Positions 8,956 through 51,416 of a stretch of 64,000 nt of DNA are shown here, piece after piece (position 1 is the stretch's first letter; every line of letters starts with the position of its first letter). The notes beneath the pieces were generated by a model. The model was not told where the DNA came from. It searched no databases and saw nothing but the letters and a program-made list of their open reading frames with translations. The stretch lies in the IMG/VR virus record IMGVR_UViG_3300007516_000015, positions 1-64,000 of that record; one strand, written 5' to 3'. The DNA is from a virus. Position numbers and translations under genes: made by a program.

Positions 8956-10392
8956 ATGGCAAAAATAAATAAAGATACATTAGAATACCTTGGGAATGAT
9001 TATCAATATAGGTTGATAGCTCAAATATTATCGGATTCAAAATTTGGTAACTCTATAATTGATATTGTAGACCCAAATTATTTTCAAGAACCATATTTAA
9101 GGGTTGTTGCCGCTATAATAAAAGAAGCTAAGGAAAAAGATGATATCATTCCAGACATTGGTGGTCTTAGAATTCGTATTCTTGATGATGTGTCAAATGA
9201 CATGCAACAAAAGTATGCTATTAGAGAATTAGAGAAGATAAGTCAAGCTAGTTTACAAGATACTTTCAAAGTTCAAGATATTGCTATGAAATTTTGTAAG
9301 CAACAAGAATTAAAAAAATCTATCAAAGAAATCCAAAGTATTATTGATAAGGGTGATATTAATGACTATGATGAATGTGAAGCTATTTTAAAGAAAGCAC
9401 TTGAATACGGCCACGTAAAAGACGAGGGTATGGATATCTTTGATAATATCAAAGATGTGTTACGTGAAGATTTTAGAAACCCAATTAGAACAGGTATTAA
9501 TGGTTTAGATGAATACATGGATGGTGGTTTATCTAAAGGTGAGTTAGCTGTTATCTTAGCACCTTTTGGTACTGGTAAAACCACGATGATAACCAAAATA
9601 GCTAACACAGCTATGAACGATGGTTATAAAGTACTTCAAATATTTTTCGAAGATAACCCAAAAGTTATTCAACGAAAACACTTGGCTTGTTGGAGTGGTA
9701 TTGAATTGAATTCTTTATCGCAACACCAAGCAGAAGTTTTCGAGTTATGTCAAGAAAAAATGTCATTACCTAAAGAAGGTAAAGGTATTCTTAAGCTTAA
9801 AAAATTCCCAAGTGATGGTACTACAATACCAATGATTCGACAATATATTAGAAAACTAATAGCACAAGGTTTTAAACCAGATATTGTTTTATTAGATTAT
9901 ATTGATTGTGTACAACCATCAAAAACTTTTGCTGATGCAAACATTGGTGAAGGAAGTGTTATGAGACAATTTGAATCGATGTTGGATGAGCTGGATATGG
10001 CTGGTTGGACTGCGATTCAAGGTAATAGAAGTTCGATAGGTGCAGCGGTTGTTGAAGCCAATCAAATTGGAGGTTCTATTAAAAAGGGTCAAATTGGCCA
10101 CTTTATTGTTTCAATAGCAAAAACGTTAGACCAAAAAGAAGATGGAACCGCTACCATGGCAATTCTTAAATCAAGATTTGGTAAAGATGGGGTTATTTTT
10201 GAAGATATAACTTTTGATAACGCTAAAATACAAATAGATATGGGTCAAAGTAGAGGTCCTAGAACAAGAGGTGAATTTAAACAAGACATTAAAGAATCAA
10301 ATCAAGCAAGAGTTAATTCGGTTCTAGATGCAATGAAAAATAGAAAAGAAACTTTAATTTCCGAAGTTCCTAAAGAAACTGATAATCTCTAA
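8956..10392 (+). CDS. 41: DnaB-type replicative helicase (T4 gp41-like)
   Basis: Hexameric 5'-3' helicase that unwinds the fork and works with primase. An N-terminal helical domain (residues 1-150) precedes a RecA-type motor domain: [20 protein letters not shown] is the standard entry. Walker [11 protein letters not shown] is near residues 200-209, a Walker B strand ends in DYID (near 315), and sensor residues follow ([13 protein letters not shown]). Size 478 residues matches T4 gp41 (475) and DnaB (471). The gene follows a terminator, so it may depend on readthrough or on an unrecognised promoter in 8905-8955. nrdB follows after 22 nt. Confidence 0.9.
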
Positions 10393-10414: not shown

Positions 10415-11368
10415 ATGTACGAACCAATTTTAACACCAAATGAAGACAGATTTGTTATATTTCCGATTCAACACCAAGATTTATGGGCTTATTATGACCT
10501 AGTTAAAGAGGCTATGTGGACAGAAAAAGAAATTGACTTATCTAAAGATTTAGACCACTGGAATAATAAGCTAACTGATAACGAAAGGTTTTTTATTAAA
10601 AACGTTTTAGCATTCTTTGCGGCTTCTGATGGAATTGTAAACGAAAACTTAGCTGAAAATTTTTTAAAAGAAGTTCAATATACTGAAGCAAAATTTTTCT
10701 ATGGTTTCCAAATTATGATGGAAAACATACATAGTCATATGTACTCATTGTTAATTGACACATATATCAAAGATACCAAAGAAAGAAATGAGTGTTTTAA
10801 AGCTATTGAGTTTATGGCACCAGTAAAGAAAAAAGCTGAGTGGGCCTTGAAATGGATTGAATCTGAATCTTTTGCTGAAAGACTAGTTGCTTTTGCTGCT
10901 GTTGAGGGTATATTTTTCTCTGGGTCTTTTTGTAGTATTTTTTATCTTAAGTCAAGAGGTTTAATGCCTGGACTTTGTGATAGTAATGCCTTTATTTCTA
11001 GGGACGAAGCTTTACATTGTGATTTTGCTATTCATTTATTGAACAACCATATTGTTCATAAACCATCATCAGAAAGAATTAGAGAAATTCTTTTATCGGC
11101 TTTAGAAATTGAAAAAGAATTCATCACTGAATCTTTACCTGTTTCACTTATTGGGATGAATTCAGAATTAATGAAACAATATCTGGAATTTGTTGTTGAC
11201 GGTTTATTACATCAATTAGAATGTGAAAAAGAATTCAACACTAAAAACCCGTTTGATTTTATGAATCAAATCGCTTTAAAAACAAAACAAAACTTTTTTG
11301 AGGGTCGTTCAACAGAATATAAATCAGCTGATTTAAGTGGTGCGATATCGTTCGATGAGGAAATTTAA
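10415..11368 (+). CDS. nrdB: Ribonucleotide reductase class Ia, beta subunit
   Basis: Carries the di-iron/tyrosyl radical cofactor that starts reduction of ribonucleotides by NrdA. The ligand set is complete: Asp72, Glu103, His106 and the radical Tyr110 (ENIHSHMY), a second helix pair with Glu in VEGIFF, and Glu/His in RDEALHCDF. The length of 317 residues is slightly short against T4 NrdB (388) and Escherichia coli NrdB (376). The last residues ([10 protein letters not shown]) are the usual acidic tail that docks on NrdA. nrdA follows after 13 nt, so the subunits are probably co-translated from one mRNA. Confidence 0.93.
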
Positions 11369-11381
11369 TAAAATATAAAAT

Positions 11382-13526
11382 ATGAAAATAACGAAAAGAA
11401 ACGGTAGTAAAATTGATTTCAACCCAAATAAAATTTTAACTAGAATAAAAAAACAATCCGAAGGGTTAAAAGTAAATGCGGATGAGGTGTTCATTAAAGT
11501 AACACAAGGTATAGCTGATGAAATGACAACGAATGAATTAGATGATTTGATTTCAGTGGTTTCCGAATCGTTGGCGATGAATCATCCAGATTATTCAAAA
11601 TTAGCTGCGAATATATCAATTTCAAAACTTCATAAAGAAACAGAGGATTCTTTCATGAAAGCAACTAAAAAATTATACAACGCTGGGTTGTTAAACAATT
11701 TTTATTATAATAAGGTAAAAGAGAATATTGAATTGATTGAATCAGTGATTAATTATAAGAGAGATTTTCATTTTGATTATTTTGGTTGGTCTTCATTGAA
11801 AAATATTTACTTGTTAAAACTAAAAGATGGTGTTATAATTGAAAGACCTCAACATATGTATGTTAGGGTCGCGCTTATGGTGACAAATACACCAGAAGAT
11901 TTTATTGAAAAATACAATGATTTGAGTTTCCAGAGAGAAAGCCCAGCAACACCACTTAAAATGAATGTTGGGACAAATATAGGTCAAATCGCTTCATGTA
12001 ATTTATCCATAGTTACCGATGATTCAACAGAAGGGTTACTAGATATTTTAGGAAGAATAGCTATTTCTTCATCAAAGGCTGAGGGTATTGGATTAGCTGT
12101 ATCTAATATTCGTTCAAAAGAAAATAACGTAGGGAATTCAGATGGTAAAGCTGGTGGCGTTTTAAAATATCTTAAGGTTGTTAACGAAACACTTAGATTT
12201 TGGAACCAACGAGGTAAAAGACCAGGTTCAGCCGCTGTCTACATCGAACCATGGCACAAAGATATTTTTGATGTCCTAGATATGAGGAAAAAAACAGGTG
12301 ATGAAACACTTAGAGCTCGTGATTTATTTTCAGCTCTTTGGATTTCTGATAATTTCATGAAAGCTGTAGAAACGAATGGTGATTGGTATCTATTTTGCCC
12401 TCACGACATCAAATCAGCTGGTTTAAAGCCTTTTTACGAGATTTATGGTGCTGAGTTCGAAAAAGAATATAATTTGGCCGTAGAAATGGGTTTAGGGGTT
12501 AAAATAAAAGCACATGACTTGTGGATAAAAATTATTGAATCACAAATTGAAACAGGTATGCCTTACATGTGTTTTAAGGACCACAGTAATAGTAAATCAA
12601 ACCAAAAAAACATGGGTATGATTCATTCTAGTAATTTGTGTGCTGAAATTATGGAAGTAACTGATTATGAAACTACTGCGATATGTACTCTTACTAGTAT
12701 TCCAGTTCAAAAATTTGTAATAGATAAAAAATATAGTTTCTTTGAGTTAGGTAGGGTAACCCGTTCAATAACAAAGTCATTAAATATTGCTATTGAAATT
12801 AACGATTACTCAACACCAGAAGGTAGGAAAGGTGGGTTAGAGCAAAGAGCTTTAGGAATAGGCATTCAAGGTTTGGCTGATGTGTTTGCTATGTTAAGAC
12901 TTCCATTTGTTTCAGAAGAAGCTAGAACTCTTAACAGAAATATTTTTGAGACGATATATTATAATGCTTTAAGACAGTCATGTGATTTGGCTAAAGAATC
13001 TGGTGAAACATATTCTGGTTATGAAGGTTCTCCTATATCTCAAGGTATCTTCCAGTGGGAAATGTGGGGGATAACAGAAGATAAGTTATCTGGTATGTAT
13101 GATTGGAATGAATTACGAGAAGATATATTAAAATATGGTGTTAGAAATTCATTAACAACATGTTGTCCCCCAACAGCGAGTTGTCAAGTTATTGACACTA
13201 GGATTCACACTGAAAATGGTGTGAAATCATTTAAAGATATGCTAAAAGAAAATGATATTAATTGGGAATCATTAGAGGGTACTAACATACAACAATGGAT
13301 AACCCTAAAACCATTTAATGTAAAAACAACTGATGGTTATGAAGAAGTTAATAAGATAAAATATAATGGATATTCTACAGTATATCAAATTGAAATGGAA
13401 GATGGTTCTATTTTTGAAGCAACATCAAACCATAAATTCAAAGTAAAAAGAAATGATAAAGAAATATGGGTTGAGGTTAGTGATTTAACCACCACGGACG
13501 ATATATTAAATATTTTTGAAAAATAG
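11382..13526 (+). CDS. nrdA: NrdA N-terminal part fused to N-half of a split intein
   Basis: First piece of the catalytic alpha subunit of class Ia ribonucleotide reductase. Residues 1-95 form the ATP-cone allosteric domain. The active-site barrel follows, with the first redox Cys in ASCNLSIV, the NLCAEI motif carrying the thiyl Cys and Glu, and the second region TAICTLTSIPV. The host sequence stops at residue 600 within PPTAS. Cys601 begins an intein N-half of 114 residues: splice block A CQVIDTRI and block B SIFEATSNHKF. The frame then ends at 13526. The remainder of NrdA is encoded at 14630, joined to an intein C-half. This is an intact split-intein precursor, not a pseudogene. Confidence 0.9.
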   Translation: MKITKRNGSKIDFNPNKILTRIKKQSEGLKVNADEVFIKVTQGIADEMTTNELDDLISVVSESLAMNHPDYSKLAANISISKLHKETEDSFMKATKKLYNAGLLNNFYYNKVKENIELIESVINYKRDFHFDYFGWSSLKNIYLLKLKDGVIIERPQHMYVRVALMVTNTPEDFIEKYNDLSFQRESPATPLKMNVGTNIGQIASCNLSIVTDDSTEGLLDILGRIAISSSKAEGIGLAVSNIRSKENNVGNSDGKAGGVLKYLKVVNETLRFWNQRGKRPGSAAVYIEPWHKDIFDVLDMRKKTGDETLRARDLFSALWISDNFMKAVETNGDWYLFCPHDIKSAGLKPFYEIYGAEFEKEYNLAVEMGLGVKIKAHDLWIKIIESQIETGMPYMCFKDHSNSKSNQKNMGMIHSSNLCAEIMEVTDYETTAICTLTSIPVQKFVIDKKYSFFELGRVTRSITKSLNIAIEINDYSTPEGRKGGLEQRALGIGIQGLADVFAMLRLPFVSEEARTLNRNIFETIYYNALRQSCDLAKESGETYSGYEGSPISQGIFQWEMWGITEDKLSGMYDWNELREDILKYGVRNSLTTCCPPTASCQVIDTRIHTENGVKSFKDMLKENDINWESLEGTNIQQWITLKPFNVKTTDGYEEVNKIKYNGYSTVYQIEMEDGSIFEATSNHKFKVKRNDKEIWVEVSDLTTTDDILNIFEK

Positions 13527-13550
13527 TTGGTGGTTTATCGGTTTGGTTGG

Positions 13551-13558
13551 TATTTATA
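13551..13558 (+). promoter_or_regulatory. Late-type motif TATTTATA before the endonuclease gene
   Basis: TATTTATA lies 13 nt before the ATG at 13572, with a TTG 21 nt upstream (13527-13529). It may let the nuclease be transcribed independently of nrdA. Confidence 0.3.
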
Positions 13559-13571
13559 GCTAAAGAAAATT

Positions 13572-14633
13572 ATGAAAAATTTACCAACCAAACCATCACC
13601 ATTCAAAATTGAGTATTGGTTAAAAAAAGGTTTTAGTAACGATGAATCTATTGAAAAAGTCAGGATACATAGGTTAAAATGTATTAGAACTTTAGAGTCA
13701 TTTATTTATAACCATGGAGAGATAAACGGGTTATTAAAATTTAAAGAATTTTGTGATAAAAGTAAACATACGTTAGAAAGTTTTATGAAAAAATATGGTA
13801 AGGAAGATGGTAAATTAAAGTGGGATGCTTATTTAAAAACTAAAGATTCGAATAGTGAAAAATGGGCCTTAAAGAAATCAAATGGTGATGTTTATAAAGC
13901 TAATGAAATTTTAAAAGAACGTAAAAAAAATGTTATTGTGACGTTAGATAAATTAATAATAAAATATAATGATATTGAATTAGCTAAAGAAAAATTAAAA
14001 GATATAAATAAAAGAAAAGATAGTTCATCTCTAAAATATTTTATAAAAAAAACAAACGGGGATTTAAAATTAGCTACTATATTATATAAAGAACGCTCAT
14101 TAAAAAAAGATTGTATGAGTATTAATTTTTTCCTTAAAAAGACAAACGGGGATTTAAAATTAGCTAAAGACTTACAAGTTAGTGAGTTAAACAGAAGAAA
14201 TATTAGTTTTTGTATAGCATCTAAAGAATCTTTAGTTTATTTTATACCACTATATAAATATTTACGTAAAAATGGTTTTAAGCGAAGTGACATATTTTTA
14301 GGTGTTAATGGTTCATATGAATATAAGTTACACGATGTTGATAAAAATATAACGTTCTCTTATGATTTTACAGTCCCATCATTAGGTTTAATTATCGAAT
14401 ATCATGGTGAAAAATTTCATCCAAATATCAAAAAATATGGTGTTAATAAATTAAGGGAAAATAGATGGGGTAAACACTTTAGATTAGATTTAGATAAAAG
14501 CATCTTAAAAGACAAAACTAAAAAAGAATTAGCTATAACAAATAACTTTGAATATATTGAGTTATGGTCATCTGATTCAGAAGAAATAAATAAAGAGAAA
14601 ATAATTAAATTTTTAAAAATAAATAAGTTATGA
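13572..14633 (+). CDS. Vsr-like (EDxHD-type) homing endonuclease
   Basis: Free-standing nuclease gene between the two halves of fractured nrdA; probably promotes spread of the insertion by cutting uninterrupted nrdA. The N-terminal two thirds hold several helix-turn repeats with the recurring patterns KYGKEDGKLKW and KTNGDLKLA, likely DNA-recognition units. The catalytic part is near residues 255-290: YDFTVPSLGLIIEYHGEKF followed by HPN, the Vsr/EDxHD signature, then ENRWGKHFRLDLDKS. Length is 353 residues. Lys content is higher than in the neighbouring genes. The gene overlaps the IntC-NrdA gene by 4 nt (ATGA), so both may be translated by coupling. Confidence 0.8.
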   Translation: MKNLPTKPSPFKIEYWLKKGFSNDESIEKVRIHRLKCIRTLESFIYNHGEINGLLKFKEFCDKSKHTLESFMKKYGKEDGKLKWDAYLKTKDSNSEKWALKKSNGDVYKANEILKERKKNVIVTLDKLIIKYNDIELAKEKLKDINKRKDSSSLKYFIKKTNGDLKLATILYKERSLKKDCMSINFFLKKTNGDLKLAKDLQVSELNRRNISFCIASKESLVYFIPLYKYLRKNGFKRSDIFLGVNGSYEYKLHDVDKNITFSYDFTVPSLGLIIEYHGEKFHPNIKKYGVNKLRENRWGKHFRLDLDKSILKDKTKKELAITNNFEYIELWSSDSEEINKEKIIKFLKINKL

Positions 14634-15238
14634 AAATAAAAACTATAATTAAGGGTGATATAAAACCTACTTGGGATATTGAGGTTCCTAATGTTAATCA
14701 TTATATCATGGAAAATGGGTGTGTAAGTCATAATTCAGCTCGTGTTATTGGTTCAAACGAAGCTTTTGAACCGTTCACATCTAATTTATATGTTAGAAGA
14801 GTAACTGGTGGTGAATTTGCTATGGTAAACAAACATTTAGTTAGGGAATTGGAAAACGAGGGGTTATGGAATAGAGAGATGTTAAATGAATTAATTAAAA
14901 ACGATGGTAGTGTTCAAAATATTCCATCAATAAGTCAAGAATTAAAAGATATTTTTAAAACAGTTTGGGAAATATCACAAAAATCTCTTATTGAAATGTC
15001 TGCTGAAAGAGGTCCGTTCATCGACCAATCACAGAGTCTAAATATTTTCTTTCAAACACCAACTGTCGGTAAATTAACAACATCACATATGTTGGGGTGG
15101 AAATTAGGTTTAAAAACAGGTCAATATTATTTGAGAAGTCAACCAGTTGAAATGAAGTCTAAACACTTGGCTATTGATTTAACAACAAAACAAAAATCGA
15201 TAGATAGTCAATTCGAATGTTTCGGTTGTTCTTCGTAG
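14630..15238 (+). CDS. nrdA: C-half of split intein fused to NrdA C-terminal part
   Basis: Residues 1-35 are the intein C-half: block F TWDIEVPNVNHYIMENG and block G CVSHN, with penultimate His and terminal Asn. Ser36 is the +1 nucleophile. Residues 36-202 continue NrdA directly from residue 600 of the upstream product (SARVIGSNEAFEPFTSNLYV) and end with the redox-active pair FECFGCSS that is recharged by thioredoxin or glutaredoxin. Trans-splicing would give a 767-residue NrdA, close to T4 NrdA (754). The ATG at 14630 overlaps the endonuclease stop by 4 nt. A strong terminator follows at 15283. Confidence 0.9.
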   Translation: MKIKTIIKGDIKPTWDIEVPNVNHYIMENGCVSHNSARVIGSNEAFEPFTSNLYVRRVTGGEFAMVNKHLVRELENEGLWNREMLNELIKNDGSVQNIPSISQELKDIFKTVWEISQKSLIEMSAERGPFIDQSQSLNIFFQTPTVGKLTTSHMLGWKLGLKTGQYYLRSQPVEMKSKHLAIDLTTKQKSIDSQFECFGCSS

Positions 15239-15400: not shown

Positions 15401-15787
15401 ATGGCTAATGGTCGTTTTATAAACATAAACTACCCCTTCAAAGATAGTAAACAAGGTTTTTTTATCGATTTAAACGCTGATGATAAATCAGCGATAAAAG
15501 CTGACCTCATGCATTTAATCCTAACTATTAAAGGTCAAAGATTGTATAACCCAGATTTTGGTACAAATTTAATGAGGTTTATTTTTGAACCAAGTGACGG
15601 TTTCACATTTGAAAAAATAAAAGAAGAAATAACTACTCAAGTAAAAAAATACTTACCAAACCTAGATATAACAGTTATATCTGTTGAGCAATCAACGGAA
15701 AATGATTATGCTGCGGTTTTAAGACTTGATTATACAATAACAGATGATGTGTTTACGACATCAGATTTCGTAATAATAAACATTTAA
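15401..15787 (+). CDS. 25: Baseplate wedge protein gp25-like
   Basis: Small baseplate wedge component that bridges wedge and sheath in contractile tails. The gp25/GpW-like signature is visible in residues 20-60: SAIKADLMHLILTIKGQR then LYNPDFGTNLMRFIFEP. The sheath-like handshake strands follow near the C-terminus. Its 128 residues match T4 gp25 (132). The next gene, gp6-like, starts 2 nt after the stop, the same gene order as in many contractile systems (gp25 then gpJ/gp6). Confidence 0.9.
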   Translation: MANGRFININYPFKDSKQGFFIDLNADDKSAIKADLMHLILTIKGQRLYNPDFGTNLMRFIFEPSDGFTFEKIKEEITTQVKKYLPNLDITVISVEQSTENDYAAVLRLDYTITDDVFTTSDFVIINI

Positions 15788-50585: not shown

Positions 50586-51416
50586 ATGAGTAAAAAATAT
50601 GTAAATTTCGATGTTGATGACAGCATTGCAAAATATTTTAAAGATGTAAGGAAATCAGTTATTTTAACTCCTTCTGAGGAATTAGAATTAGCTATAAGAA
50701 TTAAAAATGGGGAACAATCTGCTATAGATAGATTAGTCAATTCAAATTTGAAGTTTGTTGTTTCGATAGCGAAAGATTATCAAGGCCAAGGGTTACCATT
50801 ATCAGATTTGATAAATGAAGGTAATTATGGTTTAATAAAGGCGGCAACTAGGTTTGACCACACCAAAGGTTTTAGATTCATTTCTTACGCTGTGTGGTGG
50901 GTTAGACAATCGATTATTCAAAGTTTAAACGACAACGCTAGAATAGTGAGGCTCCCAGCCAATATAATAAACAAATTATCATATTTAAACAAAGAAATTA
51001 TTAAATTTGAAGTTGAAAATGAAAGAGAACCAGTTTATGGTGAAATTTTCGGAAAAGACAATGAGATTGTAACTCTTTTACGTTTTCCAAAATGTGCTTC
51101 ATTAAACGATTTGATAAATGAAGATGGTGATGAGCTTATTGAATTAATACCTTCAGACACTGAAGGTGAAGACGCTATGATTGTTGATGAAAGAATCAAA
51201 AACGAAATAAATAAAGCCTTGTCAGTTCTCTCTGACAGAGAGAGGGAGATAATTGAATCTTATTTTGGGATAAATAGCCGTTTCGAATCGATGACTTTAG
51301 AAGCAATCGGTGAACGATATTCTCTAACCAAAGAAAGAATTCGACAAATAAAAGAGAAAGCAATAAGAAAATTAAGACATAACGCCCATAATTTACATGG
51401 TTTGATTGATGAATAA
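50586..51416 (+). CDS. RpoD-like sigma-70 factor
   Basis: Directs RNA polymerase to promoters. Region 1.2/2 is complete: a start like that of Bacteroidota RpoD, NLKFVVSIAKDYQGQGLPLS, DLINEGNYGLIKAA, then the -10 recognition helix FISYAVWWVRQSI (about residues 98-110). Region 3 follows. Region 4 has DREREIIESYFGI and the -35 recognition helix TLEAIGERYSLTKERIRQIK (near 240-259). Length 276 residues equals the short primary sigma of Bacteroidota (about 287, no region 1.1). T4-like phages usually encode the divergent gp55, so this is a host-type sigma, probably acquired from a host and possibly used for later phage promoters. A terminator follows. Confidence 0.9.
   Translation: MSKKYVNFDVDDSIAKYFKDVRKSVILTPSEELELAIRIKNGEQSAIDRLVNSNLKFVVSIAKDYQGQGLPLSDLINEGNYGLIKAATRFDHTKGFRFISYAVWWVRQSIIQSLNDNARIVRLPANIINKLSYLNKEIIKFEVENEREPVYGEIFGKDNEIVTLLRFPKCASLNDLINEDGDELIELIPSDTEGEDAMIVDERIKNEINKALSVLSDREREIIESYFGINSRFESMTLEAIGERYSLTKERIRQIKEKAIRKLRHNAHNLHGLIDE

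What the first reader, a model, noticed from the sequence alone, without database searches (positions are those of the whole stretch)
13182..14734. Fractured nrdA: a split intein pair with a Vsr-like nuclease gene between the halves
NrdA is encoded in two separate genes. The first ends with an intein N-half starting at Cys601, the second begins with a 35-residue intein C-half before Ser+1. The join restores the conserved PTAS/SARVIGSNEAFEP sequence. The nuclease gene overlaps the second gene by 4 nt. Trans-splicing would be needed for ribonucleotide reductase, so an essential enzyme depends on a selfish element. The layout matches the rare fractured-gene class, here in a Bacteroidota phage and in nrdA. 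The halves look complete, so this may be a new fast-splicing split intein pair.
Basis: partly seen in the sequence, partly recalled or inferred. Interest (0 to 1): 0.82.

Follow-up and report, generated by a model that had tools for sequence, protein, structure and literature searches.

The report
Split ribonucleotide reductase gene with intein
A phage makes its DNA-building enzyme as two separate proteins that most likely stitch themselves together through a split intein, with a selfish DNA-cutting gene sitting in the gap; the layout is a known rare kind, but relatives here show nearly every step of how such a broken gene is gained, kept under control and then fixed.

Summary
nrdA is two ORFs. 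The first ends in a 114-aa intein N-half starting at Cys601. The second begins with a 35-aa C-half ending His-Asn|Ser. A 353-aa nuclease gene lies between and overlaps the second ORF by 4 nt. The exteins join into a 767-aa class I NrdA at the active-site loop. The nuclease C-domain folds like Vsr and I-Bth0305I. This is the 'fractured gene' arrangement of Dassa 2009, which already included nrdA, so it is a new member of a known kind. Fast splicing is untested.

What goes further is the comparison with relatives. Occupied and empty alleles are scattered across one phage clade. One near-identical pair (L018/L063) differs by exactly this cassette; another (L069/L070) by a clean deletion inside the nuclease. 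Alleles with the nuclease eroded or gone stay fractured. The nuclease start lies in a strong hairpin enclosing a promoter-like TATTTAT. Hairpins with different stems occupy the same place at other fractured loci, matching the known T4 I-TevI control logic. Some relatives split nrdA into three proteins. Cultured Klebsiella jumbo phages carry related fractures, so the mechanism can be tested.

The parts
10415..11368 (+). nrdB (RNR small subunit), upstream neighbour
   Evidence: ORF; identified by its sequence and its place before nrdA
11382..13181 (+). NrdA N-extein, aa 1-600; carries the residues equivalent to human RRM1 C218, N427, C429, E431, C444 (C206, N418, C420, E422, C435)
   Evidence: TIGR02506 458 bits; alignment to 3hnc
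13182..13523 (+). Intein N-half (114 aa), Cys1 to Lys114, with a TxxH block (TSNH)
   Evidence: TIGR01445 over cut-off; 32-77% identical in other fractured loci; dN/dS 0.08-0.31
13528..13601 (+). Predicted RNA hairpin enclosing the nuclease start codon (arms 13528-13534/13540-13559 and 13570-13576/13582-13601)
   Evidence: -27.9 kcal/mol, z -5.8; hairpins with different stems at the same place in other loci
13551..13557 (+). TATTTAT, promoter-like motif within the hairpin
   Evidence: At -20 to -24 of the nuclease ATG in five of the loci tested, TATTTGT at -21 in L099; motif enriched in intergenic + strand
13572..14633 (+). Free-standing homing-endonuclease gene (353 aa): N-terminal helical repeats, C-terminal Vsr/EDxHD-like domain (14187-14630)
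   Evidence: phrog_9084 'homing endonuclease' 5.6e-7; C-domain model pLDDT 82, Foldseek best matches Vsr and I-Bth0305I
14630..14734 (+). Intein C-half (35 aa) ending ...GCVSHN
   Evidence: TIGR01443 over cut-off; 58-94% identical in other loci
14735..15238 (+). NrdA C-extein with stop, begins Ser+1; carries Tyr731-Tyr732 (human Y737/Y738) and the C-terminal CxxC (C762, C765)
   Evidence: PF02867 142 bits; alignment; motif positions

Best explanation
This is a mobile cassette (IntN - endonuclease gene - IntC) inserted precisely at the codon boundary PTAS|S of a phage class I nrdA. SHOWN by sequence: the gene is broken into two ORFs; the intein halves carry the splicing residues and are under purifying selection; the cassette is present or absent at the same nucleotide in near-identical sister phages; and the fracture persists when the endonuclease gene is deleted. 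INFERRED: the two proteins are translated separately, IntN and IntC associate, and protein trans-splicing removes the intein and ligates NrdA 1-600 to 601-767. The site is the substrate phosphate-binding loop and the two halves hold complementary catalytic residues, so neither half should work alone. INFERRED: the Vsr-like nuclease cuts the uninterrupted nrdA of co-infecting phages and repair copies the cassette in. INFERRED: the nuclease gene is silenced on the nrdA read-through transcript because its start codon lies in a hairpin, and is expressed from a promoter nested in that hairpin whose transcript lacks the 5' arm, as in phage T4 I-TevI.
For: Split-intein profiles over cut-off. Junction restores the sequence of empty alleles. 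dN/dS between diverged alleles: IntN 0.08-0.31, IntC 0.03-0.24, also in lineages without the nuclease; nuclease 0.14-0.21 between window, L008 and L091. Occupied alleles scattered among empty ones: 6 changes on the tree, single clade rejected, AU p 3e-79. L018 vs L063: 94-100% nucleotide identity over 3 kb upstream and 94-98% over 600 nt downstream of an exact insertion. L069 vs L070: clean ~1 kb deletion inside the nuclease gene, fracture kept. Nuclease domain resembles Vsr (probability 0.97-0.99) and I-Bth0305I (0.92). Start-codon hairpins: 10 nucleases against 103 other gene starts, Mann-Whitney p 1.2e-5. A phage sigma factor gene at 50586-51416.
Against: No biochemistry: splicing, cleavage, promoter use and hairpin repression are all predictions. 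Foldseek E-values for the nuclease are only 0.03-0.06, and the profile search of PDB gives E 0.1-0.4. One nuclease of ten (L092) has only a weak start hairpin, and L073 lacks the nested motif. No I-TevI-like operator resembling the homing site was found. The 10 nucleases in the hairpin test are partly related to each other (L008/L091, L099/L054), so p is optimistic. The mobility evidence shows gain or loss of the cassette, not which of the two, nor that the nuclease drove it.
Confidence: 0.88

Rival explanations
1. The two NrdA pieces work by non-covalent assembly without splicing, as in Aeromonas phage Aeh1, where a mobE insertion splits nrdA and the enzyme is active in pieces.
For: Aeh1 precedent (PMC2988022). 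Nothing here shows splicing directly.
Against: As described in PMC2988022 and PMC3653736 the Aeh1 case is active in two pieces without splicing. Here both sides of the break carry intein halves that keep splicing residues and low dN/dS, even in alleles without the nuclease, and the break is inside the active-site phosphate loop (PTAS|S).
Confidence: 0.06
2. The cassette is passively inherited or spread by ordinary phage recombination; the nuclease is not (or no longer) a homing enzyme for this site.
For: L018 carries a 114-aa nuclease stub and still differs from near-identical L063 by presence of the cassette, so at least that polymorphism could be recombination or loss.
Against: Exact insertion point and scattered occupancy; full-length nucleases under purifying selection; nuclease reading frame and overlap with IntC kept in diverged loci.
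Confidence: 0.2
3. The arrangement is an assembly or sequencing artefact, or a decaying pseudogene.
For: Metagenome origin of the window.
Against: Recovered in other IMG/VR contigs and in diverged phages; purifying selection on all parts; equivalent arrangement in cultured Klebsiella phages phiKp_21 and KP13-7.
Confidence: 0.01
4. The hairpin over the nuclease start is a transcription terminator/attenuator or RNA-processing signal rather than a translation block with nested promoter.
For: T4 mobE has a terminator in its 5' coding region (PMC2988022).
Against: No U-run follows the stem in the window; the start codon lies inside it, and the loop side holds the same motif in loci with unrelated stems.
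Confidence: 0.25

Closest known systems
Fractured genes with split inteins and Vsr-like endonucleases (Dassa et al. 2009, NAR 37:2560; text not held, content from citing papers PMC3653736, PMC7090010, PMC12350094 and recall)
   Same: Conserved DNA-synthesis enzyme broken by a split intein with a free-standing, often Vsr-like, endonuclease gene in the gap; nrdA is one of the host genes; mainly phage.
   Different: Here a population series (empty, full, eroded, nuclease-free but still fractured), near-identical pairs for insertion and deletion, and nrdA split into three proteins in some relatives. Whether some of this is in Dassa 2009 could not be checked.
I-Bth0305I / EDxHD-Vsr homing endonucleases (3R3P; Vsr 1CW0, 1VSR)
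   Same: Predicted fold of the C-terminal domain; D, E and H columns invariant in the set.
   Different: Only about 14-17% identical; N-terminal helical repeats without a Pfam match; first Glu of the EDxHD name not invariant.
Contiguous NrdA mini-inteins of Campylobacter phages CP220 and PC14
   Same: Corresponding insertion site; homologous splicing domain (IntN of PC14 42% identical).
   Different: Not fractured by the intein; no nuclease inside the intein.
Klebsiella jumbo phages phiKp_21 and KP13-7 (Alcyoneusvirus)
   Same: Fractured nrdA at nearly the same position; IntC 64% and IntN 32% identical.
   Different: The gap holds an HNH-type ORF instead of a Vsr-like one; insertion about one codon earlier; KP13-7 has a second fracture with a GIY-YIG-type ORF.
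T4 I-TevI and Aeh1 mobE expression control (PMC2988022)
   Same: Start region in a stable hairpin with a promoter nested so that its own transcript escapes the hairpin.
   Different: Endonuclease in a group I intron or free-standing in T4-type phages; here inferred from sequence only, with unrelated stems, and without a detectable autorepressor operator.

Membership tests
Fractured gene (Dassa 2009) | Conserved enzyme gene broken into two ORFs | tested here: met
Fractured gene (Dassa 2009) | Split intein halves flank the break with splicing residues (Cys1, TxxH, HN|Ser+1) | tested here: met
Fractured gene (Dassa 2009) | Free-standing endonuclease gene in the gap | tested here: met
Fractured gene (Dassa 2009) | Protein trans-splicing | not testable with these tools
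   Only selection and conservation
EDxHD/Vsr-like homing endonuclease | Vsr-like fold of nuclease domain | tested here: met
   Best three Foldseek PDB matches are Vsr (two entries) and I-Bth0305I, probability 0.92-0.99, E 0.03-0.06
EDxHD/Vsr-like homing endonuclease | Conserved acidic/His catalytic residues | tested here: inconclusive
   D265, E276, H283 invariant in 10 sequences; the first Glu (E219) is replaced in several
EDxHD/Vsr-like homing endonuclease | Cleaves the uninterrupted allele and promotes its own copying | not testable with these tools
   Circumstantial: exact empty/occupied pairs and scattered occupancy
Class I NrdA | Catalytic Cys, Asn, Glu and radical-transfer Tyr residues present after joining | tested here: met
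   Alignment to human RRM1 3hnc
gp41-1 / NrdJ-1 ultrafast split inteins | Sequence kinship and fast kinetics | not tested
   No InBase held; phmmer of the joined intein against PDB lists only DnaE-type inteins, weakly
I-TevI-type expression control | Start region in a stable hairpin | tested here: met
   By prediction: z -5.8; set test
I-TevI-type expression control | Late promoter nested in the hairpin | tested here: inconclusive
   TATTTAT motif at -20 to -24 in most loci, enriched in intergenic + strand; late use not shown
I-TevI-type expression control | Operator resembling the homing site (autorepression) | tested here: not met
   No similarity above shuffles

The most novel reading that the evidence does not exclude
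Fracture acts as a one-way ratchet in this phage group. A split-intein cassette homes into nrdA with its own hairpin-locked, promoter-carrying nuclease; the nuclease later decays repeatedly, but the gene does not rejoin, so an enzyme stays permanently dependent on trans-splicing. Some phages build NrdA from three polypeptides and relatives also fracture the replicative helicase. The hairpins with nested promoters arose on unrelated stem sequences, so the control logic is under selection rather than merely inherited.
Probability: 0.5. Interest if true: 0.65.

Novelty: new member of a known kind. Interest (0 to 1): 0.52.

Why it matters
Natural split inteins without any nuclease (the kind used as protein-engineering tools) need an origin. 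Here one phage clade shows the intermediate steps at the same nucleotide: empty site, full cassette, eroded nuclease, nuclease gone with fracture kept. It gives near-isogenic pairs and cultured relatives in which homing, trans-splicing of an active-site loop and hairpin control can be tested. The IntN/IntC pairs are new candidates for orthogonal split inteins.

Tried and rejected
Search for the same intein in bacterial and archaeal genomes (genome contigs): none. Other inteins in the window's own record: none. I-TevI-style autorepressor operator: no signal. Full-length nuclease model with 5 sequences: confidence too low to use, replaced by the C-terminal domain. Profile search of viral contigs with the 9-sequence IntN alignment failed for lack of conserved stretches, replaced by a closer set. 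Idea that alleles without the nuclease might have rejoined into a contiguous intein: rejected, IntN still ends in a stop and IntC has its own start after a gap of about 34-56 nt. Dassa 2009 full text is not in the library, so overlap with its 'gene control elements' (recalled from its abstract) could not be checked. The host phylum (Bacteroidota) was not tested directly; it rests on nearest nrdA matches to Cellulophaga and Tenacibaculum phages.
Full report
Observation. The window lies in a 68,135-base IMG/VR phage record. The order is nrdB 10415-11368, nrdA-N+IntN 11382-13526, nuclease 13572-14633, IntC+nrdA-C 14630-15238, then baseplate genes. IntN begins at Cys601 (13182) after ...CCPPTAS; IntC is MKIKTIIKGDIKPTWDIEVPNVNHYIMENGCVSHN before SARVIGSNEAFEP. 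NCBIfam intein N- and C-terminal models pass their cut-offs. The same DNA is found at 99.98% in IMG/VR contigs 3300007722 and 3300027976 and at 99.5% in 3300007523.

The host protein. The joined 767 aa matches human RRM1 over residues 2-739 (719 bits). C206, N418, C420, E422 and C435 lie in the first protein; Tyr731-Tyr732 and the C-terminal CxxC lie in the second. These correspond in that alignment to human C218, N427, C429, E431, C444 and Y737/Y738 (residue roles: established knowledge of class I RNR). PTAS|S corresponds to human 603-607, the substrate phosphate loop (established knowledge). So the break sits in the active site and each piece lacks catalytic parts. That makes splicing, rather than Aeh1-style assembly in pieces (PMC2988022), the likelier route; it is an inference.

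The nuclease. PHROG 'homing endonuclease' is the best profile hit. A model of the C-terminal 148 residues from 10 relatives (pLDDT 82, pTM 0.78) has as its best three PDB matches Vsr (1CW0, 1VSR; probability 0.97, 0.99) and I-Bth0305I (3R3P, 0.92), with E-values of 0.03-0.06. D265, E276 and H283 are invariant; the first Glu is not.

Relatives at the same site. Eighty nrdA loci from viral contigs, and further loci found with the nuclease and IntN, were classified by tblastn and ORF reading. Empty: most, e.g. most of L013-L066. Full with nuclease: window, L008, L091 (contig ends within the nuclease), L069, L071, L073, L092, L098, L116. Nuclease eroded: L018/L006 (114-aa stub), L070, L115. Nuclease gone but still two ORFs: L005, L007/L009/L010/L060, L072. 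In the last group the gap between IntN stop and IntC start is about 34-56 nt. In a tree of 45 close exteins the seven occupied alleles are scattered: 6 changes, and holding them as one clade is rejected (AU p 3e-79; a first tree had been seen before this test). L018 and L063 are 94-100% identical over 3 kb upstream and 94-98% over 600 nt downstream and differ by the exact cassette. L069 and L070 are about 97-98.5% identical either side of a 1-kb deletion that removes the nuclease start, its hairpin and most of its gene while IntN and IntC stay intact. In the intein tree L005 sits with L008, L007 with window/L018, and L072 with L073, with moderate support, which suggests nuclease loss more than once.

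Selection. Nei-Gojobori dN/dS between diverged alleles is 0.08-0.31 for IntN and 0.03-0.24 for IntC, including pairs in which both alleles lack a working nuclease (L005, L007, L018); exteins 0.05-0.15; nuclease 0.14-0.21 among window, L008 and L091. Some synonymous distances are near saturation, so these are rough.

Control of the nuclease gene. The nuclease start codon lies in a hairpin at 13528-13601 (-27.9 kcal/mol, z -5.8, 0 of 200 shuffles). L008/L091, L098, L071/L069, L073, L116 and the nuclease of a fractured helicase (L099/L054) have hairpins at the same place with different stem sequences; L092 has only a weak one. The energy at 10 nuclease starts is lower than at 103 other starts (p 1.2e-5); the two most extreme controls outside the window are themselves starts of GIY-YIG-type ORFs in a neighbouring fracture. 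The motif TATTTAT (TATTTGT in L099) lies at -20 to -24 in window, L008, L091, L098, L071 and L099. TATATTTAT occurs 5 times in intergenic + strand and 0 times in intergenic - strand, against 0.2 expected by shuffling, and precedes other phage genes; a related form precedes the baseplate gene at 15401. The phage encodes a sigma factor. No comparable hairpin is predicted in L018, L007 and L005, where the nuclease is eroded or gone. This matches I-TevI control in T4, where only a nested late promoter gives a transcript free of the hairpin (PMC2988022). Promoter use, timing and repression were not measured.

Wider pattern. Other relatives have further breaks: a fracture at NL|C with a GIY-YIG-type ORF (L007, L018, L063), the same kind of ORF and fracture near NLC in L098 and L116, a nuclease-free fracture at NLC|S (L005), contiguous inteins (L058, L071, L116), a second fracture in L072, and a fractured helicase (L099, L054) whose homologue is intact in the window. 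Cultured Klebsiella phages phiKp_21 and KP13-7 carry a related fracture with an HNH-type ORF, and KP13-7 a second one. Campylobacter phages CP220 and PC14 carry contiguous mini-inteins at the corresponding site.

Verdict. The finding is correct and is a new member of a known kind. Its value lies in the comparative series and the hairpin pattern, which make the origin of permanently split inteins testable. Gaps: no biochemistry, no InBase comparison, Dassa 2009 not readable here.

Noticed in passing
L007 3752-4939, L018 3831-4616, L063 4628-5413: A second fracture of nrdA at NL|C with a GIY-YIG-type ORF between the halves, so NrdA would come from three polypeptides in L007 and L018 (two in L063).
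   Followed up: partly
L005 3416-5969: Nuclease-free fracture at NLC|S, one codon away from the NL|C site of other relatives; together with the PTAS fracture, nrdA is in three ORFs with no nuclease at either break.
   Followed up: partly
L116 417-7285; L071 349-6651: nrdA carrying contiguous large inteins as well as one or two fractures.
   Followed up: no
L099 2726-5819; L054 185-2729: DnaB-like helicase gene fractured by a split intein with a Vsr-like nuclease whose start also lies in a hairpin; the window's homologue at 8956-10392 is intact.
   Followed up: partly
L125 (Klebsiella phage KP13-7) 3-5350; L084 2998-6710: Cultured jumbo phages with fractured nrdA, pieces partly annotated as hypothetical proteins; KP13-7 has a further gap, possibly an intron, after KSCSQG and a second fracture.
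   Followed up: partly
L063 6676-7425: A GIY-YIG-type ORF joined to the start of the gp25-like baseplate gene.
   Followed up: no
window 3959, 33522, 40109, 50537, 54521: TATATTTAT upstream of several genes, a likely phage promoter motif; sigma factor gene at 50586-51416.
   Followed up: partly
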